From: Siderastrea siderea
Taxonomy: Eukaryota; Cnidaria; Anthozoa; Scleractinia; Rhizangiidae
Direction: 5' to 3'
Assembly (NCBI GenBank): GCA_964030785.1
Contig: OZ034971.1
Coordinates: 36,441,804-36,505,803, forward strand
Length of the DNA: 64,000 nucleotides
Positions 16,401-63,520 of the stretch are shown piece by piece (positions within the stretch are counted from its first letter, which is position 1; the number at the start of each line of letters is the position of its first letter). The notes below the pieces were generated by a model. That model made no database searches, was not told the origin of the DNA, and worked only from the letters and a program-made list of their open reading frames with translations. The position numbers and the translations under genes are program-made.

Positions 16401-19400
16401 CCCTGGGTTCAATTATGCCTGTTATGCAAACTATGGTACACCTGATCAATCTCTGTCAAGTAAAATATGTCACAAGTCTAGAGTCGGGGCAACTACACGT
16501 TTGTCGTTTTAGTCTCGACTTGCATGTGACGAGAAACCATAGACAGCTGTTAGGTATTCACTCACTATACCAAGTGTGGTGTGGTTAATATTTCCAAGCA
16601 AGGGTGGTTAGGTATCACAAGTATTATGATCAGAAACATTTGAGTTGGTGGTGAGTATTGTTACACATACAGAAATGTCAAAAAGTACATCAGTCGGTCA
16701 CATGTAACAAACAAATGCTACAATTTTAGATTGCACCACCAGCATGCAACAAAAGTTTCCCCACCCCCAAAATATTAACACCACACACATAGTTTCTTGT
16801 ACTAGCCAAAATAAATTTAAGGCTGTCCTTTTCATCTGCTCTGCAAAATAAGAATATTTTGCCTTATTCAAGGTGTTAAAACCTTCCTCGGTGTCCTCAA
16901 ACTTATTCATGCTTTAACGTATTGAAGAAATGCTGTGGATAACCCTGAAATAAGAATTTTTTTATCGGATCTATCCAGTTCATGTATCCCTTCTCATATG
17001 GCTATTCTGTTGTTTCAGAATTCACGAATGATCATTTATACTTTGACTTCAACTGTACATGTTATTATTTTGCTTTTCACTTGCCGAAATGGCTGGTAAA
17101 AATGCAAAATCCTATACCCAAACCTGAATGATTAACAGTCTGACTAGCCGGAATTGCACGTGCAATAAATGTACATGTGAGTGTTGTTACTTGATTTTGT
17201 GCACTCCATAGACACAGTTTTCTTTAAAACTGAACAACCTTACTGTTCACAATTACTTTGCTACTCATTCTCATCATGATGCAGTTGAACTCCTCCCAAA
17301 ATAGGCAAGAAATATTGTGGTACTTCAATGCATGCTCTCCTCAATTGTTTACGAAAGTCTACGAGCTTGCACGTATGACACAATGAAGTGTACCTGTCAG
17401 GGCAAGCAAACTTCTGGTTGCATTTGACAACTTTCTTTGTAAGCGGGGTCAGCACTGCTGCAGGATAATCCAGCTTGGTTTCTTGGCACACACCCTCGTC
17501 ACAAGAGTATCCAGAAGGACAGCAATGAAACTGGTCGCCATCAGGTGCAGAACAGCAGGAGTGGTCTGATGGGCACTGGCCTTCACCACCTGGGCAAACA
17601 ACGGCAACTTCTGAAGCAGCTTCATTCTGAATAGAAATTCAAATAAAGGATGAGTTTACCTCATATACACTGTAGGACCTAAGTCGCAGTTTTCACATAT
17701 CACTTGCCATCACTATCATCATCTTCACTACCACCACCATCACTACTACGTGCACCAATATCCCCATTAATACCATCATGATGTCATTGTCATCTTTTCA
17801 TCTTCACAGCCATGGCCAACATCATTGACATTGTCATCATCCTTGTCCCATGGTGGATAAGGCCATTTTACTCATTGTATGCCTTAAATTGGCTTAAGAA
17901 AGTTTCAAATCCATAGCCTGTGAACAGGTTTATAAGTAGAAGGAGGACAAAAAATTGGAAAGCTGAGCAAGTGGTACAGGGCTTGCAGAGGAGATGGGGA
18001 TTGTAGATGTTGTATCATGAGGGCCATTTTTCCTCCTTGTGCGATGCATCAACACCTCCATCACTTCCATATTCCTCATTTGCAGGCACGTTTTCCTTAA
18101 TGTGGTATCAAACAATTGTGGCTTCAAAGGAAAGTCCACCCCCCTTCTCCCCCCCCCATCCTCTGCACTAGGCTTGCTGTGCTACCATAATAAATTTTTC
18201 TTGCATCCTACTCTTTACTAAGGAGCATGATATCTAGGCTAAGATATGTAACTGTAGAGTCAAATGTATTCATATACCAAGTCAACCAGATTGATCAACT
18301 AATCAGAACATCCTCTAGATACCTACATGTACTGTACATGTTCACTTTTGCAACAACCATTTTTTTTATCCCCTGCCAAAATGCTAGAGCTTTAGATGAG
18401 AAGACTTGGTTACCAAATCATTTTCAACAACTTTCAGTTTCAAATTCTCTGTCTTCTAGGAAATGTTTGATCAAGACTATTGTGCATCTTTCATCTACAC
18501 TCATGTTCAACTAAGAACGGTTCAAGAGGGTTTTTAGTGTCCATTGCTTGACTTGTACATGTACAATGTAAATATGCGATAAGTTATTCCTTGTATGAGG
18601 AAATAGTTGTTAAGTGAAGGCAACTAGAAAACACAGTTTAAAGGTTTTTAAATGTGAACTACATGTACATGTAACAAAAGATAGGCAACATTTGATATAC
18701 ACTGTAGATGAAGTACATGGAGGCAAACATTGCTGGCAAGAAAAATTTCCACAAAATCTTGGGCACTGTTTTGGTGTTGCTCAGAGCCTGGTCTGCCTAT
18801 GCAGGGGTCTATGACAACCCGAAATTATCACTCAAAGAAAAAGGCAAGACTTTTCAGCCTAAAGTTTAAGTGGCCCAATCAGCTAGAGCTTAAACCAACC
18901 TTGTGATAATTCTATGAGAGTATTGCTACCCCTCCCCAGCTGAGTAGGAAACTAGACCATGGCGGAGTTACCACTGGAGACAAAACAATAATATTAAAAA
19001 AAATATGGAAATGCAAAGACTAACCAGTATGATTAAAACAATGACACTGCAATCTTCTGATCAGAAGTCAAACTTGCCATCCTCAAAGGTCCAACTAATA
19101 CTATTTGTAACTAAAGTTATTTAATGCTAAATATCACACCACAACACCCCTCTTAAGAGAAAGGGTTAAACGGGATAAGCATGTACTGGAGTTGGTTTTG
19201 CCAAAAACTAGCCCCCTATCTCAAAGACATCCTTCTACACATCACAAGTGACTCAACAACCTTCTGATCAGAAGTCCAACTCACTAACCATTACACCACT
19301 GCACCCCCGTTAGGAGAAAGGGTTACACACAACAAGCACTTACTGAAGTTGGCTTTGCAGGGATTTTCTCCAACAAGGGCACAGACTTGCTTCCCACATT

Positions 19401-19631: not shown

Positions 19632-21880
19632 CTGTGAACAAAAATAAATGTGGATGCAAAGATGTTTGAATAAACATATGAACAGACATAGAAAAGAATA
19701 TTGAGTGAACCAACAAACCAATGAATGAACGAATGAACTAACAAATGAAAGAATGAATGGAAGAACAAATAAACCAACACCCTTAATAATAACAAGCAGA
19801 CATTAAAGGTGCCCATTCCCAGTTCTTAGGCAGGAACATTGGTATGAACATAGCATTTTGTTGGTGCCCAAGCAAAACTCTGGGAACCGAGCTCAGGCAC
19901 AGGGACTTCCTTCTTGAACAGTAAACAAAAACACAGAAATTACAAATAGCAAACTGTGTGGCAAACCAATTATATTAACCTACTATGCGAGTGTGAACAT
20001 GCTCAGTCCAGGGCACTAGGGTGTCTGAACAATGCCCATGTCTGTGCCGGGGGGCAATGCCCCAGAACAGGCACCTAGCTCGAGCGGGACCAAAGCGAAA
20101 CTTTTTCATCTGAAATTTTCTTTTTAAACTGGGATTGCAGCTAATCTACAAGACCACCACAAAACAGTTCCTTAAATTCCTTTGAAGAAAGTCCACTCCA
20201 GTCCAGTTCCTTTCCTTCCAATCACTTCCCTAGTTTCATAATGATATACATAATAATAATCATAATATATGTACGTACCTACAGTACATACATACACACA
20301 CCTTTACTTACAAGTATTTAATATGCCAGGGTAATCCAGTCAGTCATAACTGACTATGTTATCAAAAGGAGCCCTGCAAACTACACTATTACAATTACAA
20401 ACTACAAATTACCTAATTATGACTAGTATGTGTTATAATAAGCGAAGAACAATACAAAAAAGTAAATGCCTAACTAGTGCAATATTTATTAATTGCCGAA
20501 AGACATACTGTATTTTCTCGATTAAATGCCGGGGGTGTTTATTTAAATCTTGGCCTCCAACACCCCTATATGAACCTGGCGTTTATTCAGGGCCCGGCAT
20601 TTATTTATTAAATCATGTTTGAGGTGCTTAGGCAAATTTAGTGTGCCAATAATGACTTTTTTTAACTGTAGACATCACACTATGTCACAATGTAATTAAG
20701 CCCTGACAGATAACGAAACATGTACTACGTGAATCAATGGTCACTCGGCAAGTTAAATGTCGTGAGTAGAAACGTAAACTTTTGGATGGCTAGGAAAAGG
20801 GGAAAAATTACAAAACTGTTAACATTACATTTAATAACCTGCAGAAAAAATAATATATTTAATCCTTATTGCAGCATGCATTGATTGAATTATCGCTGTA
20901 CACGTACAAACATGGACTATGTACCTAGGCTAGTACAATAGTTTCATTTTAATATGCCTTGGACAACTGTACATATATTGCCATATAATAAGACTAATAC
21001 ATAAGCCCACAATTAAATTTATAGGTTAGCAAATAATACTTAAGTGAAGCTTTGGAAAAATTGCTTTTCATACAATGTAGATAAGATGAAAATAAAACCT
21101 GTCATTCTTGCATACTGTACTTACTAGTGAACTGTACTTCCTGTATGGAGTATAAGATGGCAGGGCAAGAAAAGGCCTGTGTAAGATTGCCTGGGACAAG
21201 TCAGTTTTTGCTTTACCGTGCATGTGCAATTGTAGTGTCTAAACAACCAACCTACCACAATCAATCCCAATATAGATAATATTATGAAACTGATATCTTT
21301 TTACAATACAATAAATTATTATTCACATTCACTAGGCATCCTGAGTGCCCAAGAACAATTTTTGTTGCAAAACTTGCCTTTTTGCAGCAAAAGAAGAATT
21401 TTCAAGATGTATCACCCTAGAAGTTGAAAAAAATTGTTTACATAGTGAGCGAAAGCAAGCATCAACATCAGCATTTTCCGTTGTGTTGTGTATTGTCACG
21501 GCAAGTTCAAAATGCTACGGCAAGTAAAAAAAGTGGCATCCGTCCGTTTATATAAGGGACAAAGTGGTGGTTGAAAGGGTAAAAAATTATGTCTTTAAGG
21601 CAAAATCTTTCATCAAGTTTTTTTGAGGTGCAGAGTATTATTGAAAAAACTTGTATTGTATTAATGTTCAAAAGTTACAACAAGTCATTCAACCAATTTG
21701 GTCAATTCTCTCACATAAATTTTGTTTCCAAAAGTTGTACTGCATGCAACACTGGCCATTCAAAATCAACAATGACTAGCTCACAAACAATTGAGCTTCA
21801 CTACAGAATATTAATATGTGTCCATGGCACACAACAGCAATATGTACACAAATATATGCATTTTCTGCAAACATGTTATA

Positions 21881-43516: not shown

Positions 43517-44626
43517 TTAAGGCAACTTCAGCAAATGGACACTAGAACAGATGACTGAAAAAATAAACAGTTTTACTACAAATAAGACATGAAAAGAGTT
43601 GACGTTGCACAAGTCAAGTCTATTAAGTAAACTACATGTTTTGTACAAACTTTTCTTGTTAACATAACTCAATACATGGTCTTACGGAGAGGTCCAAAAA
43701 TAATCACACAAAACTATATCTATTTACAACTCTCTACATAAATGTATACATTGTACATGACAAGAGTATATTATTCAGTAACAAAGTCACACGAAAGGTT
43801 GGTAAATTACATACTCGGTTTAAATGAAACCTAGAATCTTTCAAACCAGAAACTATAAGTGAATCAAATGGTGGCAAAAAGGGGTTTCCATTAAGGTGCA
43901 TGATCATATTTAAAAATAAAAAAGAAATTAGTAATAAATTCTGACGGCTGTGCTCAAGCATACACATATACAAAGTGAACCGTCAGTCTACTACACTAAG
44001 ATGCCTCTTGCAAATCACGCGTATTGCTTTACGGAAAGGAACTCACAATAGCCTGAAAAGAACTCATTCATTTACTGTTTTGGAAGAAACCGACAAAGTA
44101 AGCTTAGAATTACAACAACTACTGGATTATACAAATGGGGTCTTGAGCAGCTAGAAGCTGCAGCTAATATAAGCTTGTTTTTGATTGCTCGTCTCTGCGA
44201 TATTCGAAACTAGTTGTTTTGAAATATAATGAATAATCCATAACCTAGAATAAATCTACAAACTACAGTTTTGGAATTTAATGGCAAAGTTACCCATCGC
44301 AATGTAGCCTTCATACGGAATTTATCCACGTAGTTATTTAGTTATTGTTTACAGATTTTGGGGAGCACAAAAATCATGTGTTTAAGGTCTCAAGTGCAAA
44401 GCTTAATTGAAGAAAGGTTAAATCTGGGATAAACATGAATCAGGTAATGACCGGTAGGGTACTTTAAGAGAGACACATTGAATTTATGTAGTGTTTTTAA
44501 ATATTGTTTGCGATTCTTAGGTCTTTGGCTGAAAAATATCAGGAAGTTTGGATTAAAAATGAGATAAAATAAAGTACAAGGAAAAGCTTCCCCAGTTATG
44601 GAAATCCCTTGCGAGATGTTTTTTGT

Positions 44627-45492
44627 CTATTTCAACTTATAATTATATTTTAATAGATAACCCGATCTATCTACGTCCTTAGTCATCACAATGAGAATTT
44701 TGTTATCAGTTGGATCTTTGAATACGATGGTAGGATGAAAACCCTTTTTAAATTTCTCATGCATCCAACTAGATCTAGCATCACTTCCCTCTTTAGTGAT
44801 ATCAAAACGGCGGTAACACTGCCCCCCTGGCATTTTTGTCATCACAACAAAATACAGTCCCAGTCCAGAAGAGTAACATATTCCTGTTATCTTTTTGCCT
44901 TTATCATTCCACATTTGGATTATGGTAGTTACAGTGTTATTCCACGTATTACGAGTAAACTGAATCTGTGCTCTGTCTTTGTATTCCTTTGTGCCCTTTG
45001 TCATAACGACATAAAATGTTGAATCCAGGGCAGCACATGCAGTAATGCGAAAACCATCATCAAATTTCTCCTGTATTTTGGATGTGTCCGTTACTATCTC
45101 TTGATGAGTGCCAAAGGTTTCCATGAAGAATACTCCAAATCCGAATTTCTCATCACAAGCAAGAGAATATATGTTCGACTTTCCATTCCACTCTTCTTTG
45201 ACGAATTTAAGAAAGTTGTCATAGTTATTTCGCATCCCCCAAGTAAGAGCAGGTCTTGGATTGTACAGTTTTGAAGTTGTAAAACATCCACAAAAGTATC
45301 CATCATGCATACTTTGTGAGATCAAAATTCTTTTCGAATTTATGATGAAGCTGCCGATAAAATCAGTGTAATCAACTGAGTCAAATCCACTGCTAACCGG
45401 AAAATCACGTCTATTTCCCCCACTGTACAGAGGTTCAGTACAAGGACGTAATTTCTTTCCGGTCATGAACAGAGTCAAATCGCCACCTTCAC
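44627..45492 (-). CDS. DUF7477-like repeat exon, copy 1
   Basis: 866 nt, acceptor TCTTCTTTTAG, to a stop. Begins GEGGDLTLFMTGKKLRPC (end of the caspase fold), then repeats with ISQSMHDGYFCGCF, IYSLACDEKFGFGVFF, ITACAALDSTFYVVMTKG, ITGICYSSGLGLYFVVM and KILIVMTKD. Repeats are about 50-60 residues, as in a propeller-like fold. Confidence 0.8.
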
Positions 45493-47294
45493 CTAAAAGA
45501 AGATTAAAAATTAAATAAGCGTCAGAGTATTTCTTATTTCCAGCCTTACGGAGTTTAGTCTTACTTCAGGTTTGATGAAGCTCATGCGCAAATAAATGTT
45601 ACCAGTAGGTGCTACAATTAGGGGATAGGTTTCATGCATTAATTAAATTGTATTTTTTGGACCAAAATAGTCCAAAGAACATTTTGGAGCATGTCAACTC
45701 TCCATCCTCGATGCCAAGTTTAGTTTAGTGTGGAGGTATTAAGAAAGTACCACCGCGAGTTTCATTCGTGAAGATACCTTTAGATAAAACAAGAAGTGAC
45801 GTTTCATTGGAATACCCAAGTATCTTAGCGTTAACAACCCAGATAATTCCATGAGTCCTTGTCCTAAACAAACTCACCTTTCATACAGTTTTTGACAATT
45901 TGTATTCATTTACTTGCTTTACCTTAAACTTAACTTTACTCGTCTGATAAACATCCAATCTAGGTTCTCATTGATTCAACACACATAGCTAAGCAGCGGA
46001 CAACCCTTCAGTTTCAAAAGTTTTTCCATAAATATGGCAAAAAAATCAGCAACGATCGCCGAAGCTGAGCATTTAATAAAACAAACTATTATTCCACTCG
46101 CGATTGCTGGATATGAGGTCAAATATATGTAACAATTAATTTGGCGATATACACACCTCCTTGGTTATCCATGCTCGTGGAATGTCCAATGCGTGCTCTG
46201 AAATCTCAGTAAACGTTATTTTTTTTCCTTTTTTTTTTTTCGGGCATTGGGGACGTTTTTCACAAATTACCCGTGAAAGTGACTAGTTATTCACACAAGC
46301 ATTACTTACCTCTTTGCCTTAAACCAAGTGAACAATGGTAGTGTACCCCACACTACGTTTGGCTGAGTTTTTTTACAAAACAACAACAAAACTTATTTTA
46401 TGGGGACGTTGACTTTGTCCTTTTCAGTTGGTTGACGTTATGGATATCGCAAAAATGTCACTGGTATCCGCAAAAATTTAGCCAATCAGTTTTACCCAAG
46501 TTTTAACCTCTCCAAAATGAAAGGCTTTGGAGCATCTCAGTGATGGAAAAAGTGACGATGAAAATTATCTACAAACTACAAACCCTCAGACTACAACTGA
46601 ATCATACATCAGTATTAATGCAACTGAAAGCTTCACACACCCCTGGTATCAGTAGCTGTAGAATATTCAGGACACGCTGCAAGGCAATGGAAACCTGCAA
46701 TATTTTTCTTAATACAGAAGTTCGCCCAATGGCCGCTGTAGCATGCGTCAATGAAGATCATTGGGTAGTACACTCCTTCTGGTATCATGTCAAAAATGTC
46801 TTGAATACTGATTGTCCCATCAGCAAAGCACCAGTTTCCAGTTCCAATTTCTCCATGTCCAGTGTAGTACAACATTGGTTTGGTCTTCTTACGTTTGCAG
46901 ATATCAAACAATTTACTGATATGTCCAAGAGCTACGGACTTGGTTAAGTAAAGATCCATGACCCTGTTGTGCAAGTGAGCTTTATTTTCCAGTATGCAAT
47001 GTTGCATGTTGGCTATGTCATGAGCAACACCTGCAAGAAATGCACCGCTCCTGTCTTGAGGAGCATCCCGAGGTCTTCTTTCAGAAATATGGATGTTTCC
47101 TGGAGGATTTGAAGCACCTGCAAGTAGTAACCACTGAGGCTCAGCTGTAGTTGGCTTCCACTGTGACCACAAGTCAATTCGACCAACGTAGGGGCCCTGT
47201 GCAATTGCAGAACCAGCAAGACTGGTCATGGTTCTAACACGGGAATTTGGAGTACTTGGTTGGCGGCCTCTGTTATTTGGGCTTGTTTGGTTAC
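44627..47294 (-). CDS. Caspase-like (C14) protease fused to DUF7477-like repeats, copy 1 (5' end not found)
   Basis: Gene-level entry for exons 46641-47294 and 44627-45492, joined in phase 1. The upstream exon supplies a caspase-like domain and the downstream exon completes its last strands (GEGGDLTLFMTGKK), then encodes about 250 residues of repeats. Catalytic residues are visible: His in MLYYTGHGEIGTGNW and Cys in IFIDACYSGHW. The repeats have the form W-x-GxxI-x-FxVVMTKG, recalling the region named DUF7477 in plant casein-kinase-like proteins (from memory; a profile search is needed). The exon begins at an acceptor in phase 1 (CTCAG|GT AAC CAA), so a start exon lies further upstream and was not identified. 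No signal peptide or membrane helix is seen, so it is probably cytosolic. A role in cell death or immunity is inference. Confidence 0.75.
45493..46640 (-). other. Intron between caspase-like and repeat exons, copy 1
   Basis: About 1.15 kb, similar throughout to the copy 2 intron. It holds a possible alternative first exon (46157-46172) and a donor-like GTAAGTAATG near 46305-46314 that is also present in copy 2. The frame before the second site has a stop. Confidence 0.55.
46641..47294 (-). CDS. Caspase-like domain exon, copy 1
   Basis: 654 nt, acceptor TTTATCTCAG, donor CCAGGG|GTGTGT. It opens with a polar stretch (NQTSPNNRGRQPSTPNSR), then WLLLAGASNPPG, GAFLAGVAHDIANMQ, LYYTGHGEIGTGNW and PMIFIDACYSGHW, and ends ACPEYSTATDTRG. 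The order matches the p20-like core of caspase-fold peptidases. The polar leader and a missing first exon leave the N-terminus open. Confidence 0.8.
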
Positions 47295-47327
47295 CTGAGA
47301 TAAAATTACGGCTTTTTTAAGGCACTT

Positions 47328-47471
47328 AACGACTACAAGTCACTTTGTCCAACATAGGAACCTTGTGCAATTGTAGAACCAGCAAAACGTGACGTAGTTC
47401 TAATAAGGGAATTTGGAACTTGAATTGCATGCTTGATTGGAGCCCTCTGTTATTTGCACTTTACTGGTTAG
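47328..47471 (-). pseudogene. Relic of a duplicated caspase-like exon start
   Basis: On the minus strand, acceptor-like CTTCAG is followed by sequence whose frame gives PNSLIRTTSRFAGSTIAQGS and YVGQSDL, then a TAG. It parallels PNSRVRTMTSLAGSAIAQG-PYVGRIDLW of the intact exon just downstream. It is an exon fragment left by an older tandem duplication. Confidence 0.75.
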
Positions 47472-48149
47472 CTGAAGTAAAGATATGACTTTTTTTAGCT
47501 ACTTAGTTATTTATTTTGTTACTTTAGTTAGTGAGTTTTAATGTTTTAAGTGTTTTTTTTGTTTTGTTTTTTGGTGGGGGCACCTTAAGATTGCGACAAG
47601 AATAATAAACCGCGAAAACAAAACAGCCTCAAAATACATTTTAAAGATTAAAGTTAAATCGTCGAAAGGAATTTTTGTGCTTTTTTGTGCTTGCAGCATT
47701 GTCGCAAAATTCGTCTTTTAATAAGAATCATTTATTCTTTTAAGGTATTGGTGTATAAACTTCATCCATGTTTGCATATTTTTTTCTTTTTCTCGGAGCG
47801 TTGATCCCTTTCTTAAATATGCGTCTGCATTTTCAGATTCATAACTAGCACTTTGTACGTGTAATCGGTTTACAATATAAAACCACTGAGATCACATAAG
47901 GATGCCACAATTGAAACAACTATTTCATGTCTGAGATGGATGTAGCAATAGTTTTATTTCCTTTTTTGTAGGGAGTAGATGGATCGAAACAGAAAGTTTT
48001 ATTAAAGATCTTTTTCACGGATCAGTAAATTTCTCCAAATTCTAATCTATCATCGCAATGAGAGCTTACTTTTGCATTGCGCCGGCGAGAATTCAGTGTA
48101 TTGCTGCTTTTCCAAGCTAATGGTACGGTTCTTGTTCTTGCGAACAAAT

Positions 48150-48520
48150 AGGCGTAGTCGTAGGCGTAGTCGTATAAAAGGTAACTGTAAAAAATGTTTG
48201 TAGGTACGATTTGTCACTTTGAAAGTGTCAACAATGTTTATGTGTCTTGTCTCGTGGCTAATGTGGCTACGACGGTTATACGTTCTACCCGCCTGGTACC
48301 GAAAGAAATGCAAAATTACAATTCTTACAATAATTACTTTTTTCATCTCGGAATGGTCCTAAGACCTTAAATGTGTATCGCCACAATGGAAATTTATTCT
48401 AACTTTTTGAAACAATGGATATTAATTGTTAAGATTTCTATTAACCGTAATGGAAAGAAATTAACCGTTAACCGTAAAAACAGGCAAAATTTTAACCGTT
48501 AACCGTAAATCCACGACCCC
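48150..48520. repeat. TAACCGT-rich dispersed repeat
   Basis: GTAGTCGTATAAAAGGTAAC, GGCTAATGTGGCTACG and repeated TTAACCGTTAACCGTAA are shared with about 59540-59750. Confidence 0.65.
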
Positions 48521-49474
48521 ATTGAGACCCTCATCTTAATGATGGATTACTGCAACAGTTGGCAGGTGTCGATAGATTCAGCAAAAGTTGATTCCTTCTT
48601 CGATCAAGTGAACTTCTAGGTTCTAGGTCACAAGTACATCTAAGAATCTAACCTGGTCTTAATAGTAGGTCGCTGTTCTTATCTCTCGGGCGTACAAAAA
48701 GGAGGGGTGGCATCCCCCCGCCGCCCATAAGGTTTTACTTTTCCTAGACGATTTTTGTCAGCACCTGCCGTTTTCAGTAGCTGTACGCATATCCCTTGGA
48801 CACATTTTCACATAAGTTTGGTGAGAAGCCGTTGCTATGGTTAAGTGATATGACGTCATAAATAGCAGGTGGTCGAGCCATTTTTGGGTAAAAATGTGTG
48901 TTTTTCACCTTTTATGGGTGCAAAAAGCAAAAATTGTCCGCAAAGCAGCAAAGTGTTTAATTAAGACGGCCCCCCGCGAAGCGCGGCCGCCTTTTAGTTT
49001 TGCGAAAGCGCATTCCTTTCGTAGGTTCTTGAAGGTCACGGATGGTTGATTGGTATGTTAGTGATATCTATTAGAACAGGAGGGGTGGGTAAAACTGAGT
49101 TACCGATATAATTATTTACGTTACTAGAAGAAGACTGTTGCGAAGAGGTGCCGATTCATGGAAACGTTTAGGCTACTTTTTGGACTACTGACACCATGTT
49201 CTTCAGTTGCCGAATAAGTTTCCAGAACTGATTTAACACAACCAGACGTAAAGTTGTTTTAAATTACCTAACAACTTCAACCTAGGAATGACCTTTCCAC
49301 AAGAAGGTAGTCACGTAAAACAGGTAACACAATTCTATAAAATGCACAGCATTTTTGATATTGACAATATGGCTGTAGTTGAATTCAGTTCTGTAGGAGA
49401 TTTAATTCTAGTGGCTCGCAAATTAACGTCAGCTTGTAGGAGCCGTCTTTAATAAGTCAAGTAAGATAAAAAAG

Positions 49475-49634
49475 CAATGCTGATTCAACGGTAGGGAAAC
49501 TGTATATTTACCAATATTTCAAAAGGCACAGCCTTTCTTCTTCAGGGTCTTACAGAGAATGACTCTAAGGGTAAAAAAGTTACAATTTAAACTAAGGGTA
49601 TATACAGTTTCTCTACCGTTGAATCAGCATTGCC
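49475..49634. repeat. Inverted repeat pair, ~38-bp arms
   Basis: CAATGCTGATTCAACGGTAG plus GGAAACTGTATAT on the left is inverted at about 49597-49634. Between them lies AAAGGCACAGCCTTTCTTCT, a wording I have seen in retroelement ends. Confidence 0.8.
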
Positions 49635-50106
49635 CTTTTATCGTACTTGGTTCTTTATTTCTTGCTGGTTAGATCCTTTACTACAGGATCTGCCGGTACT
49701 TTTTATTTTGTTACGGTGGTCCATGCAAAGTTTACTGTTTTTAATAAGCCACAGGTTTTTATGTTATGCCATATTTTACATGTCGAGCATAAAAAATTTT
49801 CAATTTCTGGCGTTTTTTGATGATTTCAAAGAAGGCGGCCATATTGGTCACCATCTTGGATGACGTCACAGGCCCCCACCAGCGCCTCCACCCATAAAAT
49901 ATACCTCATCTTGAAGAGCACTTTCTATCAGAGGCAAAATCTTTCTGAAATATTGAAACACAGCAAAAACCCAGGGAAGGGTTCCATCAACTCCGGCCAC
50001 CCAACTCTTGTACCACGGTGGGGGTTTGACTTTGCTTGTACGTCCGACGGTTAATGTAAGGGTTAATGTTGCGGAAACAAGCCAAGTTACTTTAGCATTT
50101 TGTCCT

Positions 50107-51860
50107 TTCCACAAATTTACGTGTAATTACGGGAATCCCCTAATTCCTAGTAGAAACTGCTCATGTGATAATCATGTGGATTAACCGTGTCATAGCCAGC
50201 CAATAGCTACAATAATAAGGTTGTTTTAGATTACTCAGCCTTAAGCATCTAACATTGTTTTTCAAAGCCATCTTAGTAGGGAAGTGGTTGAGTTTTTTTC
50301 CAGAGCCAGCAAAAAGTGTTTTTGGTCTTAACCATTTTTGTTTTATTTAATATGTAAGAATTTTCCCAGTCTTAGCAAGTTGTATTCGTTGTATGTTCAA
50401 AGCTTCACCACAATCCATTATGAAATTGAGCCCATTAAAACACGTGGGCCGTAAAATTAGGGTACCCGTGATGCTTTGCGCGCCCACAAAGGTTACCGCT
50501 ACCGGAAGTCGCCCTTTTGAGTCTCAGCATGAGAATGCTCGAGAGTATTGGGCTATTAAATTCGCCACAGACAAAAGAAATTGAATAGAGACAATGAAAT
50601 AAGTAAGATCGTAAAGCGACGTTAATGTTCCATTATATTGCAAAACGAAGCCCACTTTCTGCTGTCATGTGATTCTGTCATGTTTTATTAAAAATGATAC
50701 ATATTGCGGCAAACATTCTGTATTCCTTCAGTAGAACCGAATAGACGAAAATGGATAACAGTAACACGCATTTATTTAACGGATCAACATTGAACAAATT
50801 GATCGATGAAGTCACTTCCTAAATTAACACTAGGCCTGTACCACCAGGCGTTAGATCTTGGGAAGCAGCATGAAGAAGAAGCGATTTTGAAGTTGCATTA
50901 CTTCTTCTTGGTCATTTGATCTGGAGAAACTAGGAAACAGTTTCAGTATGATCATTTCCAAGAATCAGGAGCTACTGTTTCTTTAAATCACGGTTGAATA
51001 ACTGCTGCTGAATATTACAGTCTCGGTGTTGTAAGACTTGCAAGGAAACACGGAATGAAACAATGAAACGAGGTTTCCTTTGGGTAAACGAATTATAGTT
51101 ACGATGGTTGTTTGAAATCATCCGTTACATATAAATATATTCGGCGAGAGTTTAGGACATTGCTCGCTAAACTTTCCTTTTTAGTACCAATCGATCACTC
51201 GTCTTTAACGTGCAGCAAGCGGGAATTCCACTCCAGACCAATACTGAATTAACTGTAAAACAGTGTAAAATAGATCGTATAATTACATGATCTACAACAT
51301 ATCTTTGCGCAAACAAAATTTATTCAAATTGAATTACTTGTATAAACTGTATAAATTGCTGTTGAGTAGGAGCGTTTTTCACGTATTTGCCAAATACTCG
51401 ATTTTTCTTAGCTTGAGAACAAAGAAAGTCTGCTTGAGGTCTACGTGGGATATGTTCCTGTTTGGTCAGACAAGCGGAATTAAAACAGTGAAACGATATT
51501 TACCTTGATTTGAGGGAAAGAATTTTACTTTCGATGCTTGTTTGAAATTATCAGCTACAAGAAAATTCGGCGATAGTTTAGGCGGTTGCCCGCTTATCTT
51601 TAATGTTTTTGACTAGTCTGATCAATCGATCATTCGTTTACTGTGTAATGACTGTTACAGCAACTTCACCACAATTGATTCTACCGTCTAATTACGTGAT
51701 GTAACAAAAAACGAATTCAAATGAAGTGTCCTGTATATGTTGCTCTCGATAAGAAGTGCCTATCTGCTATCAAAGTAAACGACTGCTCGGGACCTTATTA
51801 GGCCTAAGTAAAATGCCTGTTACCAATTTTGCCTATTCCTTTCGAAACTTCTGGACCTTA
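50107..51860. repeat. Duplicated upstream block, copy 1
   Basis: From CTAATTCCTAGTAGAAACTG to TTTCGAAACTTCTGGACC, this matches 60090-61725 nearly throughout. A third, decayed copy lies at about 62525-63520. It has no coding frame I can support. Confidence 0.85.
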
Positions 51861-51877
51861 ACACCCGATGACGCAAA

Positions 51878-53703
51878 CAGTCCAGAGCATTTCCACTTTT
51901 GGAAATGTGCGAAACAATAGCGTGATGTCACAGCATGGCGGCTTTGAAATGTTACCGAGTGGATTCAACTGAAAGTTTTAATTTGCATTTTTTCGAGCCT
52001 TCCCAGCCTGCTTTGCCCGTCCATAAGAAACACGACGACAAAGACAGCATTGAAAAAGTGTTGTGCAGGATATTGTGGTAAATGGTGGCGAAATATGTGC
52101 TTAGGTGAGGTTTTACTTTCGACCCACGTCAATTTTGCTTGTTTTCTCGAGCGCTTATTCATCTTCAAATTACTATATCTCTCGTGAAAATTTTTTCTAG
52201 GCTTTGAAAAACTTCAGAGGCATTCTGTAGGTATTCTAGTTGTTTAGTGCGAAACCTGGCGATGGGCCGCGCTTTTGATGGGCCGGCCGCGCTTTGTTTT
52301 GTGAATCAATTTGTGGAACCAAATGCCATTGCTCTGAACAAGTCTATTTGGGCGCCGAGCCTTTTCCTTCGTTTCAGGATGCATATCAGAGATCGTTGCA
52401 GGGTATGTGCTGGACTGGTATATAGTGATAAGAGAACATGTGAGGTTTCTTTGTCTGAGTCAGAGTCCAAGGCTCTATATGGAACGTCGATATCGGAAAA
52501 GGCTTGGCCGAAATCCAACCAGTCAAGATTTGCTAATAGACCTGCTAACGACAGAAGGAGACCTGAATCTTCTAGAGAGTCTTACTGACACATGTTTGAC
52601 TAAATTAGCGTTCAGCCCTTTGTTTGGCAGGTTGCATAGCTGTAAAGAAGCTACAACTTCAATTTCTTGACTAAAGGGTTGTATGGATCAAACTCCGTGA
52701 TGCGAAACACCATCTTGCAACAGTATCACGACAAGCTGGGCCCGGCGTTTCAAACAATAATCTGGCGGTGCAGACAATATGTTTATCCTTTATCGTCGGA
52801 AATTCGTTCACAACAGGCTCAAAACCTATCAAGGTCCTAATTGAGCTAAACGTAACTTACCTAATATGCCAAGAACGGCATTAAAACTACTTTAAGTCGC
52901 TCAGCAGACAGAATCGGAACAATCACACCAAAGCTGCAGGCCGATCCAGAAACACATCAGATATGACCTTGATATGACCTTCAGTGTTGTGCTTTATTAA
53001 TTTGTTTCTATCTACCATCGGTTGAGGGCAAATCGATGAAACTGTTTAAGACAGAGAATTGAGCTACGAAATATGGATCTGTAAAGCTGTTCATGAGTTA
53101 ATAAAAAGATATAAGCTTACTCTGTTTTACCTGTGTTAAATCATTTCATATGGCGGCAAATGTGTCCTAATATTTGTACTGTTGCGCGACCACTGATTAG
53201 AAGCGAAATTCAAGCGCTATTCGCAATTCAGTCATTCCTGGCTAAAGAATATCGAATCCATGGTTCTCTTTTTGTACCCAGCTTATCCAGGCCAGAAATA
53301 AACGAAAATAGATTTGTCTTCACATGGTTTCCTTTTATTCATCTGAAACAGACGACCCGATCTGTTACGAACCGCAGCGGGGAACCGCAGCCGTCTGCAC
53401 GACTAGAAGAAAAATAAGCTTCATACAAGCGCTTGACAAGCGCTCATCGCAACTTATTCCTGGCTAAAAGATGTTTAAACCATGTTTCTGCAAGCAGTCA
53501 ATCCCAGGCAGTAATAAACGTAAATATTGACTGTAAATATTGCTGGATTGTTCCATTCAAATCTGAGAACTTCATCAACTATCATGAAATCTCATGAAAA
53601 CAGGCCCCGCAGCAGGTGACTCCAAAGTCGCGCTCTAATTGGATAATTGTTTGTTTTGGTCCCCCGGTCAAAACATTTCCAAAAGTGGAAATGCTCTGGA
53701 CTG
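51878..53703. mobile_element. TIR element, 1.83 kb, CAG...CTG ends
   Basis: CAGTCCAGAGCATTTCCACT plus TTTGGAAATG at the left, with the exact inverted copy at the right. CAG...CTG termini are usual in hAT elements, but no 8-bp target duplication is visible. Internal frames of 70-113 residues are unrecognised. It lies at the right limit of the 50.1-51.9 block and is absent from the paralogous place near 61.73 kb. Confidence 0.75.
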
Positions 53704-53713
53704 ATTACAAGAG

Positions 53714-54295
53714 TATATGAATGAATGTTTATGAATGAATGTTTATTTCCCATGAAGTGATTTAAGTACATTAGAATGAATACTAATTTAATAACTTGGG
53801 AGGAAGACTATAGAAACCCTCACGGGCTTTTACAAAGTAGTCCCCCTTTTGTAACAATTATCAAAAAAAATACATTCAATTTGTATCAGTCAGGTAGTAA
53901 GATTACAGTAGTAAGATTTTATACATGTACAATATTAAGATCCCTCTAATTAAGTAATTTCTTATTTTTTATTTATACTGAGCTATCGCTGCTAAGGATA
54001 AAATATATTGTTTCAGTTTCTTTTTAAAAATTTTTAAAGACACTGAGTGTTTGATGAACAAAGGTATTCTATTCCAAAAGTCAATTATTTTGTTTCTTGT
54101 CGAATATTTTCCGTAATTTGTTCTGTTATAAGTTTTATGAAGTTGCTTTGAGTTTCTAGTATTATATTCATGAACTTGCGCATTTTCTAAGCAGAAGTCA
54201 CTAAAATAGAGTGGAAGTACTTTATTGCTAAGACTGAAACTGAAGGAGCCGATTAAGAAATCATTAATGGTATATATTTAAAAGATTCAGCTGTG
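53714..54295 (-). pseudogene. LINE 3' end: reverse transcriptase C-terminus
   Basis: On the minus strand: LSNKVLPLYFSDFC, YNTRNSKQLHKTYNRTNYG, KIIDFWNRIPLFIKHSVSL and KIFKKKLKQYIL. This is the familiar C-terminal piece of CR1/L2-like reverse transcriptases. It ends at a stop, followed by a 3' UTR and a tail of repeated ATTCATTCATAAAC at 53714-53750. 5'-truncated. Confidence 0.82.
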
Positions 54296-55136
54296 TAAAG
54301 AATATACTATTCAGTAACAAAGTCACACGAAAGGTTGGTAAACTGCATACCCGGTTTAAACCTGAAACCTAGAATCTTTCAAACCAGAAACTATTAATGA
54401 ATCAAATGGTGGCAAAAAGGGGTTTCCATTAAGGTGCATGATCATATTTCAAATGAAAAAAGGAACTAGTAATAAATTCTGACAGCTGTGCTCAAGCATA
54501 CACATATACAAAGTGAACCGTCAGTCTACTACACTAAGATGCCTCTTGCAAATCACGCGTATAGCTTTACGGAACGGAACTCACAATAGCCTGAAAACAA
54601 CTCATTCATTTACTGTTTTGGAAGAAACAAAGTAAGCTTAGAATTACAACAACTATTAGATTATACAAATGATGTCTTGAGCAGCTAGAAGCTACTGCTA
54701 AGCTTGTTTTTTATTTCTGGACCCCGCAATATTCGAAACTAGTTGTTTTGAAACGGCATAATTAATAATCCATAACCTAGATTACAATCTATAAACTAGT
54801 TCTGGAATGTAATCAAAGTAAATGAGTTACCCACCGCATTGCAGCTTTTAAACCATATTTATTCGTGTAATAATGTATTTATTTAGTTATTTTTTGCAGT
54901 TTTGGGGAGCAAAACAATAATGTATTTAAGGTCTCAAGTGCAAAGCTTGACTAAAAAAGGGTAAAATCTAGGATTAGAGTCAATGTAATGACCTGTAGGG
55001 TACTTTTATAGAGATATATCGATTCGATTTATGCAATGTTCTGAGATACTGTTTGTAGTTCTTAGACCAGCAGCCAGCTTCTTCATCCAAACTGTAAGGA
55101 GAAGATTTCACAGTTATAAAATTTCCTTGGGGGTGT

Positions 55137-56002
55137 CTATCTCAACTTAAAGTTATAACAACCTTCCCAGTCCGATATATTTTTGTCGGTTGTCATCACA
55201 ATTAGAAGTTTGTTATCAGTTGGATCTTTGAATTCGATGGTAGGATAGAATCCCTCTTTATATTTCTCTTCAAACCAATTATCAAAAGCAGCATTTCCCT
55301 CTTTAGTTCTTAGATCAAACCAGCGGTAACACTGTCCCTCTGGCATCTCTGTCATTACAACAAAATACCGCCCCAGTCCAGATGAGTAACATATTCCTGT
55401 TATCGCTTTGCCTTCTTTGTACTCGCTTTGGATTTCAGTTTCAGTATCTTTCCATGTATTACGAGTAAACTGACACTGTGCTCTGTCTTTGTATTCCTTT
55501 GTGCCCTTTGTCATAACGACATAAAATGTTGAATCCCGGGAAGCACATGCAGTAATGCGAAAACCTTCATCAAATTTCTCTTGTACTTTGGATGTGTCCG
55601 TTACTATTTCTTGATGTGTGCCAAAGTTTCCCATGAAGAATACTCCAAATCCGAATTTCTCATCACAAGCAAGAGAATATATGTTCGACTTTCCATTCCA
55701 CTCTTCTTTGACAAATTTAAGAAAGTTGTCGTAGTTATTTCGCATCCCCCAAGTAAGAGCAGGTCTTCGATTGTACAGTTTTGAAGTCGCAAAACATCCA
55801 CAGAAGTATCCATCATGCATACTTTGTGAGATCAAAATTCTTTCCGAATTTATGATGCTGCTGCTGATAAAATCAGTGTAATTAACTGTGTTAAATCCAC
55901 TGCTAACCGGAAAATCGCGTCTATTTCCTCCACTGTACATAGGTTCAGTACAAGGACGTAATTTCTTTCCAGTCATGAACATAGTCAAATCGCCACCTTT
56001 AC
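55137..56002 (-). CDS. DUF7477-like repeat exon, copy 2
   Basis: Acceptor TCTTCTTTTAG, to a stop. Starts with GKGGDLTMFMTGKKLRPC. The last repeats (ITGICYSSGLGRYFVVM, EMPEGQCYRWFDLRTKEG, KLLIVMTTDKNISDWEG) are strongly changed from copy 1 while the reading frame is kept. Confidence 0.8.
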
Positions 56003-57814
56003 CTAAAAGAAGATGAAAAATTAAATAAGCTTAAGTACTTCTTATTTCCAGCCTTACGGAGTTTAGTCTTACTTCTTCAGGTTTGATGAAGATCGTGCAC
56101 AACTTAAATATTAGCAGTAGGTGCTACAATTAGGGTATAGGTTTCATGCATTAATTAACTTTTTGTGGATTAAAACAGTCCAAAGAACATTTTGGGGCAT
56201 GTCAACCTCCCCATCCTCGATGCCAAGTTTAGGTTAGTGTACAGAAAGAAAGAAAGTATCAGCGCCAGTTTCATTCATGAAGATAGCTTTGGATAAAACA
56301 AGAAGCCGTGACGTTTCATTGGAAAACCCATGTATCTTAGCGTTAACAAACCAGATGATTCCATGAGCCCTTGTCCTAATCAAACTCACCTCTCATACAG
56401 TCTTTGACACTTAACAATTTAGCAATTTATATTTTGTTACTAGCGTTACCTTAAACTTAACCTTACTCGTCTGATAAACATTCAGTCTAGGTTCTCATTG
56501 ATTCAACACACATAGGAATTAGCAGCGGATAACTCTGCTTTTCAAAAGTTTTTCCATAAATATGGCCAAAAAAATCAGCAACGATTGCCAAAGCTGAGCA
56601 TTTAATAAAACAAGCTATTATTCCACTCGCGTTTGTTGGATATGAGGTCACTTATATATATGTAACAATTAACTTGGCCATATACACACCTCATTGGTTA
56701 TCCATGCTCGTGGAATGTCCAATGCGTGCTCTTAAATCTCAGTTAACGTCATTTTTGTCTTTTTTTCAGGAATCGGGGAGGTTTTTCACACCCGCGAAAG
56801 TGACTAGTTATTCACACAAGTATTACTTACCTCCTATCCTTAAACCAAATGAAGAATGGTAATGTACCCCACACTACGTTTGGTTGAGGTTTTTTACAAA
56901 ACAACAACAAAACTTATTTTATAGTGGACGTTGACTTTGTACTTTTCAGTTGGTTGACGTTATGGATATCGCGAAAATGTCACTGTTATCAGCGAAAATT
57001 TAGCCAAACAGTTTTACCCAAGTTTTAACCTCTCCAAAATGAAAAGCTTTGGAGCAACTGAGCGATGGAAAAAAGTGATCTTGAAAAAATGAACTGCAAA
57101 CCCTCATAATACAACTGAACCACACATGTACATATTAATGTAACTGAAAGCTTCACACACCTCTGGTATCAGTAGCTGTAGAATATTCAGGGCACGCTGC
57201 AAGGCAATGGAAACCTGCAATATTTTTGTTAATACAGAAATTCGCCCAATGGCCGCTGTAGCAAGCGTCGCTGAAGATCATTGGGTAGTACACTCCTCCA
57301 GGCACCATGTCAAAAATTTCTTGAATACTGATTGTCCCATCAGCAAAGCACCAGTTTCCAGTTCCAATTTCTCCATGTCCAGTGTAGTACAACATTGGTT
57401 TGGTCTTACTACGTTTGCAGATATCAAACAATTTACTGATATGTCCAAGAGCTACGGACTTGGTTAAATAAAGATCCATAACCCTGTTGTGCAAGTGAGC
57501 TTTATTTCCAAGTATGCAATGTTGCATGTTGGCTATGTCATGAGTAACACCTGCAAGAAATGCACCGTTCCTGTCTTGAGGAGCATCCCGAGGTCTTCTT
57601 TCAGAAACATGGATGTTTCCTGGAGGATTTGAAGCACCTGCAAGTAGTAGCCAGTGAGGCTCAGCTGTAGTTGGCTTCCACTGTGACCACAAGTCAATTC
57701 GACCAACGTAGGGCCCCTGTGCAATTGCAGAACCAGCAAGACTGGTCATGGTTCTAATACGGGAATTTGGAATGCTTGGTCGGAAACCTCCGTTATTTGG
57801 GCTTGTTTGGTTAC
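55137..57814 (-). CDS. Caspase-like (C14) protease fused to DUF7477-like repeats, copy 2 (5' end not found)
   Basis: Gene-level entry for exons 57161-57814 and 55137-56002, the same lengths and phases as copy 1 (654 and 866 nt). Catalytic His (YYTGHGEIG) and Cys (FSDACYSGHW) are kept, and both frames are open, so the copy appears functional. By my alignment the caspase exon has 11 replacements in about 197 residues against copy 1. The first ~165 residues of the second exon are also close, while the last ~110 differ heavily. The upstream phase-1 acceptor is intact, so a start exon is expected above 57.8 kb. Any proposed function is inference, as for copy 1. Confidence 0.75.
56003..57160 (-). 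other. Intron between caspase-like and repeat exons, copy 2
   Basis: Paralogous to 45493-46640. The site equivalent to the possible alternative first exon carries a stop codon (ATG GAT AAC CAA TGA). Confidence 0.6.
57161..57814 (-). CDS. Caspase-like domain exon, copy 2
   Basis: Acceptor TTTATCTCAG, donor CCAGAG|GTGTGT. Same motif order as copy 1, with changes such as IFSDACYSG for IFIDACYSG and VPGGVYYP for IPEGVYYP. The in-frame extension above the acceptor is intron. Confidence 0.8.
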
Positions 57815-58431
57815 CTGAGATAAAAATACGACTTTTTTCAGCCACTTAGCGACTGCAAGTCACTTCGTCCATCATCATTGTGTTCGCCCCACTATTCCCC
57901 AAGCATTAGACTTTCTGGTCCAACTGCTTGAATGTGCCGGGTATACGATAGAGGTCATGGTAAATCAGTATCGTATCAAGAGTTACTTAGCGTTGTTGAC
58001 ATGAACACATTGGAGCATAGGCGAATCTGCCAATCACTTGAACCGCTTTACAAGTCTTTATACTGCCATGGTAATATGTATATTCGTTATCTTTTTAAGG
58101 AGTAAGGTAGTAACTTAACAGTAGGTGGTGAGAAGTCTGGCTAAGTTCAGTCTTGACTGGATGAAGAACTATTCACATACAAAGTGAATATCTGGGACTC
58201 ACTAAAAACCGATTAAGGCAGTAAAATCTTGTTGAATTTAAAAAGAAAATTAAAAATGTTAAATTTTGAGATATGAATAAAATTGTAAATTTTTGTTCTC
58301 TTCTTCCTAGCTTGTTTTTAAAATTTATTGTACATAATTGAATTTTTATACCTTTTGTAACTAGCTTCTTATATAGTTTTTACTATTTAGTTTTTATATT
58401 TTTTTTGTTAATTTTTTCTCTTTTTAGATGT

Positions 58432-59749: not shown

Positions 59750-61730
59750 CCCTACTAGACTATGTCTGTAGGGTTTGAACGAAAGTGTACTGATGATGTA
59801 TAGAACTGACACCAAGGACTTCAATTGCTGAAAAGTGTTGATAGGATTCTGGAGAGGTGTGAACTTCATTTCTTCGATGAAACTAACTTTTAGTTCAGAA
59901 ATCACTTATAACTGCAGCAAAAGATCTTTCCTGCTCTAGATGTAGATTGGTTAACTGATAGTTTGCTCTTTCAGTTTATTCAAAGAAAGGGTTAAACGAT
60001 TCCTGTATTAGCTTGCAGATGGTTTCGCAACTGGTCACACAACAGTGTTGGCCTCTGATCAACACCCGAAACATCAAATTAGGGGAATTCCCTAATTCCT
60101 AGTAGAAACTGCTCATGTGATAATCATGTGGATTAACCGGGTCATAGCCAACCAATAGCTACAATAATAAGGTTGTTTTAGATTACTCGGCCTTAAGTAT
60201 CTAGCGTTGTTTTTCAAAGCCATCTTTAATAGAAGGGAGGTGGTTGAGTTTTTTTCCCGGAGTCAGCAAAAAGTGTTTTTAGTCTTAACCTTTTTTATTG
60301 ATGTAAGAATTTTCCCAGCCTTAGCAAGTTGTATTCGTTGCATGATTCAAAGCTTCACCCCAATCCATTATGAAATTGAGCCCATTGAAACACGTGAGCC
60401 GTAAAAGTAGGGTACCCGTGATGCTATGCGCGCCCACAAAGGCTACCGCTACCGGCGGTCCCTTTTGAGTCTCGACATGAGAATGCTCGAGAGTACTGGG
60501 CTATTGTACTCGCCACAGACAAATAAATTGAATAGAGGCAATGAAACAAGTAAGATCGTAAAGCGATGTTAATGTTACCATTATATTGCAAAACGAAGAC
60601 CACTTTCTGCTGTTATGTTTTATTAAAAATGAGCCATATTGCAGAAAACATTCTGTATTCCTTCTAATCAGTAGAACAAATAGACGCAAAAGGATATCAG
60701 TAACACGAAAAGGATCAAAAAATTGATCGATGAAGTCAATTCCTTGATTAACACTAAGCCTGAACCAGGAGTTAGATCTTGGGAAGTAGCACGAAGAAGA
60801 AGTGATTTTGAAGTTGCATTACTTCTTCTTGGTCTTTTGATTTGGAGAAACTAAAAAACAGTTTTAGTTTGATTATTTTCAAGAATCAGGAGATACTGTT
60901 TCTTTAGATCACGGTTGAATAACTGCCGCTGAATATTGCAGTCTTAGTGTTGTAAGACTTGTAAGGAAACACAGAATGAAACAATGAAACGTAGTTACGA
61001 TGGTTGTTTGAAATCATCCGCTACATAGAAATATATTCGGTGATAGTTTAGGACATCGTTCTTTAAACTTTTCTTTTTAGTACCAATCCTAACGTGCAGC
61101 AAGAAATTCCACTTCATATTAATACTGAATTAACTGTAAAATAGATCGTAAATTACATGATCTACAACATATCTTTGCGGAAACAAAACTTATTCAAATT
61201 TAATTACTTGACTATAAATTGCTGTTGAGTAGGAGCGTTTTTTACGTATTTGCCAAATACTCGATTTTTCTTAGAAAGTCTGCTTGGGGTCTACGTGGGA
61301 TATGTCCCTGTTTGCTCACGACAGATAAGCGCAATGAAAACAGTGAAACGATATTTACTTTACTTTGAGAAAAAGAGTTTTACTTTCGAAGCTTGTTTGG
61401 AATCATCCGCTACCCGAAAATTCGGCGATAGTTTAGGTGGTCGCCCGCTAACCTTTGTTTTTGACTAGTCTGATCAATCGACCATTGGTTTACTGTGCAA
61501 TCACTGTTGTAGCATCTTCACCGCAACTGATTCTACTGTAGAATAGAGCGTATAATTATGTGATGTAAAATAAAACGAATTCAAATTAAGTGACCTGTAT
61601 ATGTTGCTCTCGATAAGAAGCGCCTATCTGCTATCGAAATAAACGACTGCTCGGGACCTTATTAGGCCTAAGTAAAATGCCTGTTACCAATTTTGTATTC
61701 CTTTCGAAACTTCTGGACTTAACACCCCCG
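59750..61730. repeat. Duplicated upstream block, copy 2
   Basis: From about 60090 paralogous to 50107-51860. The first part (CTATGTCTGTAGGGTTTGAA, ATGAAACTAACTTTTAGTTC) is shared with 62130-62480. Confidence 0.8.
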
Positions 61731-62129: not shown

Positions 62130-63520
62130 CTAGACTAATATCTGCAGAGTTTGAACAAAACCGTACTGAAAATGTGTAGAACTGAGAAGTAATTCTAGGT
62201 AATGATGGAAACACCTAGGACTGCAAAAAATGGAAAGTGTTGGTGGGATGCTAAGAAGGTTTGAATTCATGCTTTCTTCGAAGACGCTAACTTCTAGGTC
62301 AGAAATCACTTATCATTGCAGCAAATTAAAAGATCTTACCTGGTCTAGGATGTAGGTTGCTTTTCTTATATTTTGCTCTTTCAGTGTATTTACAGAAAGG
62401 ATTAACCGCGATTTCTGTATTAGTTTGCAGATGGTTTCGCAAAGTCAGACAACAGTGTTGGCCTCTGATGTCGAATTCCCCGACCACTCGAACAAAGCTG
62501 CAAACAACATCCTGAATATCAAATTAGGGGAATTCCCTAATTCCTAGAAACTGAGAACAACAGATGTTTTGAAGGCTCGTGTGATAATCACGTGGATTAT
62601 TCGTGTCGAGGTTGTTAAGGATTGCTCAGTCTTAGCATCTAGCTTTGTTTTTACAAAGCCATCTTACTGTGAATTGTTCCGGGTTTTTTTCCCAGCGTCA
62701 GCAAGAAGTGTTTTTTTTTCGTCATAACATTTTACATAAGGCTTTTTCCCAGTCTCAGCAAGTTGTATTCGTTGTATATTCAAAGCTTTTCTCTAGAATC
62801 CCTTCAGAGTACAAGTAAGACCATAGTCACCATATAGCTGTTACCACCATATTGCAAAGTGAAGCCTATTTTCTGCTACTATTGAATTTTATTTTACAAA
62901 AAATGATACATATCGCAAAAAAAATCCTTATACATTCAGTAGAACAAACAGACGAAAACGGATTTTAGTAACATGAATTCGTTTAACGGATCAACAAATT
63001 GATCGATGAAGTCACTCTCTAAAAATTAACACTTTGAAGCCTGTTCCTGAGTTACATCTTGGGACGCGGTGCGTAGAAAACTGGCGATTCCGAAGTTTCA
63101 TTACTTCGTCTTCGTCTTTTGATAAACAATTTTAGTATGATCATTTCCAAGAATCAGGAGCTACTTTTTTCGGACCACGGTTGAATAACTGCTGCTGAAT
63201 ATCGCTTGCTAAACTTTCCTTTTTAGTACCAATCGATCACTCGCTGGTTTAACGTGCAGCTACGAGTTCCACCTCATACAAATACTTATTTAACTGTAAA
63301 ATAGATCGTATAATTACATGATCTACAAAGTCACTTTGCACAAACAAAACGAAATCAAACAAAATTACCCGTATAAGTTGCTGTCGCGTAGGAACGTCGT
63401 TCATGTATTTGTACATGTATCTGTAAAGAAAGTCTGCTTGGGGTCTATGTGGGATACGTGTCAGTGATAATTTGTCATTCTCTAGAAACTTCTGGATACC
63501 AACGCACAAATTAACAATTT
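62130..63520. repeat. Duplicated upstream block, copy 3 (decayed)
   Basis: GACTAATATCTGCAGAGTTT, CAGACAACAGTGTTGGCCTC and AATTCCCTAATTCCTAG follow in the same order as 59.75-60.1 kb. TAGTACCAATCGATCACTCG and GTCTGCTTGGGGTCTATGTG match the later part. It holds a donor-like CCAG|GTAAGATC near 62336 on the minus strand. Confidence 0.75.

What the first reader, a model, noticed from the sequence alone, without database searches (positions are those of the whole stretch)
44627..57814. Tandem pair of caspase-like protease / DUF7477-like repeat fusion genes
Seen: two genes of identical exon size and phase, each pairing an exon with intact His (YYTGHGE) and Cys (DACYSG) with an exon of WxxGxxI...FxVVMTK repeats. 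Known: C14 peptidases often act as cell-death or immune effectors and are often fused to sensor repeats. Inferred: the repeats sense or hold a ligand and gate the protease. I do not know a described animal system with this architecture.
Basis: partly seen in the sequence, partly recalled or inferred. Interest (0 to 1): 0.78.

Follow-up and report, generated by a model that had tools for sequence, protein, structure and literature searches.

The report
Coral caspase-like protease with repeat barrel
Two side-by-side genes, probably from a stony coral, each encode one protein that joins an apparently intact caspase-like protease to a five-part barrel of unknown function; relatives occur in other stony corals and in one acoel worm, and it may be a sensor-controlled protease.

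The parts
46641..47294 (-). Copy 1, exon A: N-terminal segment and most of the caspase-like domain; probable start codon 47229-47227; acceptor-like TATCTCAG before 47294 (if that ATG is the start, 47294-47230 would be 5' UTR)
   Evidence: start inferred from relatives; no transcript of this species seen
46855..46857 (-). Copy 1 catalytic His codon (YYTGHGE)
   Evidence: sequence; aligned column is H in 45 of 46 relatives covering both sites
46741..46743 (-). Copy 1 catalytic Cys codon (DACYSG); the Asp two residues before is at 46749-46747
   Evidence: sequence; C in 46 of 46, D in 45 of 46
45493..46640 (-). Copy 1 intron, 1148 nt, phase 1, GT-AG
   Evidence: splicing supported by contiguous relatives
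44627..45492 (-). Copy 1, exon B: end of the caspase fold (GEGGDLTLFMTG) and the five-repeat DUF7477-like barrel, stop codon at 44629-44627
57161..57814 (-). Copy 2, exon A: N-terminal segment and most of the caspase-like domain; probable start codon 57749-57747
57375..57377 (-). Copy 2 catalytic His codon
57261..57263 (-). Copy 2 catalytic Cys codon (SDACYSG)
56003..57160 (-). Copy 2 intron, 1158 nt, phase 1; 90.4% identical to the intron of copy 1 over 1124 aligned bases
55137..56002 (-). Copy 2, exon B: end of the caspase fold and the five-repeat barrel
43762..47355 (-). Duplicated unit around copy 1 (86.5% identical to 54298-57875)
54298..57875 (-). Duplicated unit around copy 2

Best explanation
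Each gene makes one soluble, probably cytosolic protein of about 484 aa. The first half is a caspase-fold cysteine protease (family C14, clan CD) with an intact His-Cys pair. The Asp two residues before the Cys points to an acidic S1 pocket and so to cleavage after Arg or Lys rather than Asp. The second half is a closed barrel of five repeats of three strands and a helix (DUF7477 / polyglycine-hydrolase N-domain fold) that serves as a binding module. The most likely mechanism is that a ligand or partner protein bound to the barrel releases or dimerises the protease half, which then cleaves host proteins as part of a stress, immune or cell-death response. Shown by computation: the two-exon fusion, both folds, conservation of the catalytic residues, and occurrence in stony corals and (as a shorter gene model) in an acoel. 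Inferred: activity, the basic P1 preference, ligand binding, gating, cytosolic place and biological role.
Against: No tool here tests gating or a ligand. dN/dS of the repeats is 0.69, below 1, and the excess of changes sits in the last blades, where dS is high too (0.33), which fits recombination or gene conversion as well as selection. Only three copies were found in this genome, one of them decayed (counts are lower bounds), a modest family for a pathogen-driven one. In a sample of 296 genomes of the phylum of L010's genome, DUF7477 proteins were mainly PD40-OmpA envelope-type proteins, not caspases. The barrel's solved relative has no known function; substrate positioning or exosite binding has been suggested for it (PMC9912923, passages and section 20).
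Confidence: 0.5

Rival explanations
1. The barrel is a substrate-docking (exosite) domain of a constitutively active or Ca2+-activated protease. It chooses the substrate but does not gate activity, as has been suggested for the N-domain of fungal polyglycine hydrolases.
For: The only solved relative of the barrel found here belongs to a protease in which a role in substrate positioning or exosite binding is discussed; elsewhere the same domain is joined to proteases of unrelated families: subtilase, M48, caspase. The high pTM suggests a fixed arrangement of the two halves (inference).
Against: In bacteria the domain also accompanies a kinase, an AAA ATPase and PD40-OmpA proteins, so docking of protease substrates is unlikely to be its general role.
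Confidence: 0.28
2. The family is a derived type-2-like paracaspase used in signalling or housekeeping proteolysis, with no sensor role; its coral duplications are ordinary gene family drift.
Against: No death or immunoglobulin domain matched; MALT1 is tied with caspases and legumain, so the structural match does not single it out. No phylogeny with paracaspases was made.
Confidence: 0.15
3. The two exons belong to separate genes or the motif matches are chance.
For: Pfam scores of the window exons alone are near or below cut-off; no transcript of this species was seen.
Against: 18 of the first 20 hits run over 90-98% of the spliced query at 51-64% identity; the last part of the caspase fold is encoded in exon B, so the fold itself spans the intron.
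Confidence: 0.02

Closest known systems
Bacterial DUF7477-caspase proteins (Saprospira MAG L010; Aureispira anguillae P0172)
   Same: Same two domains in one chain, both above Pfam cut-off in L010 (DUF7477 4.2e-32, Peptidase_C14 1e-17) and P0172; coral and bacterial repeat profiles match (hhalign probability 98.0 and 98.7%)
   Different: Reverse order (repeats first, caspase last) in 7 of 7 scanned, with TPR or other stretches between; 462-941 aa; a leader-like N-terminus in 5 of the 6 whose letters I read (my reading)
Fungal polyglycine hydrolase Fvan-cmp, N-domain (PDB 7TPU; PMC9912923)
   Different: 6-7% identity; partner is a serine beta-lactamase-like protease; secreted; barrel is N-terminal
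MALT1-type paracaspases and metacaspases (C14)
   Different: No death or Ig domains as in MALT1; barrel instead; no sequence match in the PDB at E up to 10 for exon A or up to 1 for the profile A1
Coral caspase-X (PMC4715348)
   Same: C14 architecture described as restricted to corals
   Different: Two caspase domains, the first inactive; no such barrel in the passages I saw
Bacterial EACC1/EACC2 caspase conflict systems (PMC8195603)
   Same: A constant caspase module joined to variable parts thought to sense a stimulus (passages)
   Different: NCBIfam EACC1-caspase model scores 15 and 10.5 bits against a cut-off of 140

Membership tests
Peptidase family C14 (caspase-like, clan CD) | Caspase fold | tested here: met
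Peptidase family C14 (caspase-like, clan CD) | His and Cys catalytic pair | tested here: met
   Both window copies; 45 of 46 relatives covering both sites, the exception being a gene model without the core
Peptidase family C14 (caspase-like, clan CD) | Score over Pfam's PF00656 cut-off | tested here: inconclusive
   Window exons below (14.1 and 11.5 against 21.4), P0001 below (17), P0123 without a match at E up to 0.01, P0069 above (26.7); 13 of 22 members match at E up to 0.1
Peptidase family C14 (caspase-like, clan CD) | Proteolytic activity | not testable with these tools
   needs protein
Canonical metazoan caspase | QACxG active-site motif (recalled) | tested here: not met
   DACYSG in both copies; D in 45 of 46 relatives. 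Specificity itself not measured
Type 1 paracaspase (MALT1) | N-terminal death and immunoglobulin domains | tested here: not met
   no such Pfam match in the window exons or among the 9 families matched by 22 relatives; the caspase match starts 24-30 residues from the N-terminus of P0001
Type 2 paracaspase | Groups with paracaspases in a tree | not tested
   reference sequences not collected; the search for this genome's own C14 genes did not complete
Metacaspase | p10 with calcium-binding loop | tested here: inconclusive
   a p10-like GGDLT stretch lies at the exon junction; no calcium site was examined
DUF7477 (PF24289) | Score over the curated cut-off of 27 bits | tested here: met
   copy 1 27.5 bits; copy 2 25 bits falls short; P0001 31.3; 13 of 22 match at E up to 0.1. 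The whole-genome search with this model missed both window copies
Polyglycine hydrolase | N-domain fold of five repeats | tested here: met
Polyglycine hydrolase | C-terminal beta-lactamase-like serine protease domain | tested here: not met
   no such domain; the barrel ends the protein
EACC1-associated caspase | NCBIfam NF047832 cut-off of 140 bits | tested here: not met
   15 and 10.5 bits

The most novel reading that the evidence does not exclude
Stony corals and at least one acoel possess a third kind of animal C14 protease, neither caspase nor MALT1: an Arg/Lys-cleaving, cytosolic, sensor-gated protease whose barrel reads a microbial or symbiont-derived ligand. The two domains, also joined in bacteria in the opposite order, would then be parts taken over from a bacterial conflict or stress system.
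Probability: 0.17. Interest if true: 0.85.

Novelty: new variant of a known kind. Interest (0 to 1): 0.6.

Why it matters
It gives an animal example, with both catalytic residues kept, of a caspase-fold protease paired with a fold that has a solved structure and no known function. If the barrel binds a ligand, coral genes of this kind could show what that fold does. If the P1 preference is basic, animals have a C14 protease outside the caspase and MALT1 groups, which bears on how corals control cell death in bleaching and symbiosis.

Tried and rejected
Separate genes for exons A and B: rejected by contiguous relatives. Decayed pair: rejected; both frames are open, the catalytic residues are intact and the caspase half is under constraint (dN/dS 0.30). 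Pseudoprotease: rejected on the kept His and Cys. Positive selection on the barrel: not shown; dN/dS is 0.69 for the barrel and 1.34 only for a 48-residue piece with few changes, and the N/S contrast with the caspase half is weak (Fisher p 0.04; the contrast in nonsynonymous rate alone gives 1.4e-8 but does not allow for the higher dS of the barrel). Viral or plasmid origin: a viral-contig scan with A2 found 6 pattern matches and 0 relatives; plasmid tblastn gave no match. The structural search of viral proteins did find caspase-like proteins of giant viruses (4 matches at E up to 0.001, best 5.8e-5), which shows the shared caspase fold and no origin. PADLOC gave 0 families for 4 of 4 exons; PHROGs gave one weak HTH match (E 0.0074) for P0001 and two families of unknown function for L010. 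PDB sequence searches gave nothing for copy 1's exons and for A1 and A3. Rfam: 0 matches at the gathering scores.

A tight bacterial caspase-DUF7477 link: one search gives 33 of 39 proteins with both domains, but the query came from a caspase protein and many are its close relatives; in the sample of 296 genomes 8 had DUF7477: 6 PD40-OmpA proteins, 1 with DUF7477 as the only family over its cut-off, and the seed itself. The family search had 0 hits in 14 control genomes and missed the window's own two copies in the host genome, so its zeros mean little.

Limits of the counts: lists show 120 of 221 and 120 of 273 hits. I aligned 22 and 20 chosen relatives and 24 rows for exon B; the tree has 34 rows. 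A regular-expression count wrongly took in exon-B-only proteins; one search replaces it. Absence of death, Ig or metacaspase folds from the list is not evidence, because caspases fill that list.

Full report
WHAT IS THERE. On the minus strand lie two copies of the same two-exon gene. Copy 1 has exon A 47294-46641 and exon B 45492-44627; copy 2 has 57814-57161 and 56002-55137. Exons are 654 and 866 nt in both, the intron is phase 1 with GT and AG ends, and the joined frames are open with one stop at the end. The surrounding 3.6 kb (43762-47355 and 54298-57875) is 86.5% identical. A search of the window with the spliced protein finds these two copies and one 27-residue fragment at 47416-47336.

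ONE PROTEIN. A search of 5.8 billion proteins with the spliced copy 1 gave 221 hits, best 120 listed. Of the first 20 rows, 18 cover 90-98% of the query at 51-64% identity; gene models come from Oculina patagonica (a stony coral), Orbicella faveolata, Desmophyllum pertusum, Montipora foliosa, M. capricornis and Stylophora pistillata. A profile search (273 hits, best 120 listed) added more distant ones at 35-39% identity over 94-96%, and a 413-aa model from the acoel Symsagittifera roscoffensis at 36% over 83%. Many other hits are exon B alone, as expected when genomic DNA is read without splicing (inference). The caspase fold itself runs over the intron: the GGDLTLFMTG stretch and the strand after it are encoded in exon B.

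CATALYSIS. Of the 154 family proteins fetched, 46 align over both sites; 45 have His, 46 Cys, and 45 Asp two residues before the Cys. The exception, P0108, is a gene model in which the core is missing. C14 members other than caspases characterised so far prefer Arg or Lys at P1 because of an acidic pocket, and metacaspases are said to be absent from animals (PMC5756287, passages). That the Asp before x-Cys is a pocket residue is recalled. No strongly hydrophobic N-terminus or membrane-like stretch was seen by hydropathy in 8 of 8 proteins.

EVOLUTION. Between the two copies the caspase half (residues 22-245) has dN 0.030 and dS 0.099; the barrel (246-505) has dN 0.127 and dS 0.184. Residues 397-505 have dS 0.333 and dN 0.253, more divergent than the intron (90.4% identical), which suggests a mosaic from recombination or gene conversion. 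Across 22 relatives the caspase half keeps 60.7% mean pairwise identity, the barrel 40.1%. In a tree of 34 rows the four Oculina rows group together (98/95), four Montipora rows and the unnamed P0006 group together (100/100), two Desmophyllum rows do (100/99), and the window's two copies are sisters (100/100): duplications within lineages, some of the Montipora ones older than its two species. The host genome (831 Mb, 402 contigs) showed three copies at the sensitivity reached: the window's two and one on contig C14. That third one is decayed: exon A is interrupted by unrelated sequence, exon B lacks a stretch and has an early stop.

BACTERIAL COUNTERPARTS. The one genome-contig scan gave 19 loci, found through the two catalytic motifs. 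L010, a Saprospira MAG, encodes 761 aa with DUF7477 (4.2e-32), TPRs and Peptidase_C14 (1e-17), in the opposite order; L001, L014 and L018, the other three I scanned, have Peptidase_C14 without DUF7477, and 15 loci were not scanned. Coral and bacterial repeat profiles match with hhalign probability 98.0 and 98.7%, which supports common descent of the repeats. A search with L010's repeat part gives 39 proteins; 33 carry both domains in precomputed Pfam, and 7 of 7 scanned again have the repeats first (P0172, P0182, P0183, P0185, P0186, P0189; L010). Others pair the repeats with a kinase, AAA, M48 or subtilase domain. Against a special link: of 296 genomes drawn from the phylum of L010's genome (Bacteroidota by the record's name; the tool names none) 8 had DUF7477; apart from the seed, 6 of 7 were DUF7477-PD40-OmpA proteins and 1 had no other family over its cut-off. 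DUF7477 therefore looks like a general binding-type module that has met caspases more than once or been reshuffled with them.

MECHANISM. Most likely the barrel binds something and thereby controls or directs a cytosolic Arg/Lys-cleaving protease. Evidence for a sensor as opposed to a docking domain is indirect (faster change, variety of partners). I give gating 0.5 and docking 0.28.

LITERATURE. DUF7477: 0 papers. Searches combining caspase, cnidarian, coral, propeller, domain fusion, metacaspase and related terms (listings seen) gave no description of this fusion; they cover only the held open-access library. Coral caspase-X is a different architecture (PMC4715348, passages). Bacterial and metazoan caspase conflict systems are treated in PMC8195603 (passages); Saprospira and casein kinase occur 0 times there, and the one DUF named in the passages is DUF1822.

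VERDICT. As far as my searches reach it is an undescribed variant of the C14 protease theme with a barrel of unknown function, worth biochemical follow-up.

Noticed in passing
window 9502-15834, minus strand (further granulin-like pieces at 17261-17638 and 19323-19802): A 2110-aa open frame with 27 granulin stretches (Pfam E 0), mostly a 234-bp tandem array of 23.6 copies: a very long progranulin-like gene.
   Followed up: partly
window 199-1794, minus strand: Single open frame for an Alg9-like mannosyltransferase (Glyco_transf_22, E 2.2e-59).
   Followed up: no
window 47331-47506: Degenerate partial copy of the start of exon A directly upstream of copy 1 (75% identical to 57685-57849).
   Followed up: no
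window 50125-51866 and 60077-61727, with pieces at 62609-63459: A second duplicated block upstream of each gene copy, 84% identical, with only short open frames in the first block; the duplication may reach further than the genes.
   Followed up: partly
L026 2829-3557 and 5912-6854 (G000 contig C14): Third, decayed copy of the gene in the same genome: interrupted exon A, shortened exon B with an early stop.
   Followed up: partly
window 44630-44956 and about 55140-55466 (last blades of exon B): The last two blades differ far more between the copies (dS 0.33) than the rest of the gene or the intron, as if exchanged by recombination.
   Followed up: partly
L042, L043, L044, L046, L047, L048: Bacterial proteins with DUF7477, PD40 repeats and OmpA in one chain, in 6 of the 8 DUF7477-bearing genomes in a sample of 296; no literature search was made on them.
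   Followed up: partly
P0193 and P0191: DUF7477 joined to an ankyrin-subtilase protein and to an M48 peptidase.
   Followed up: no
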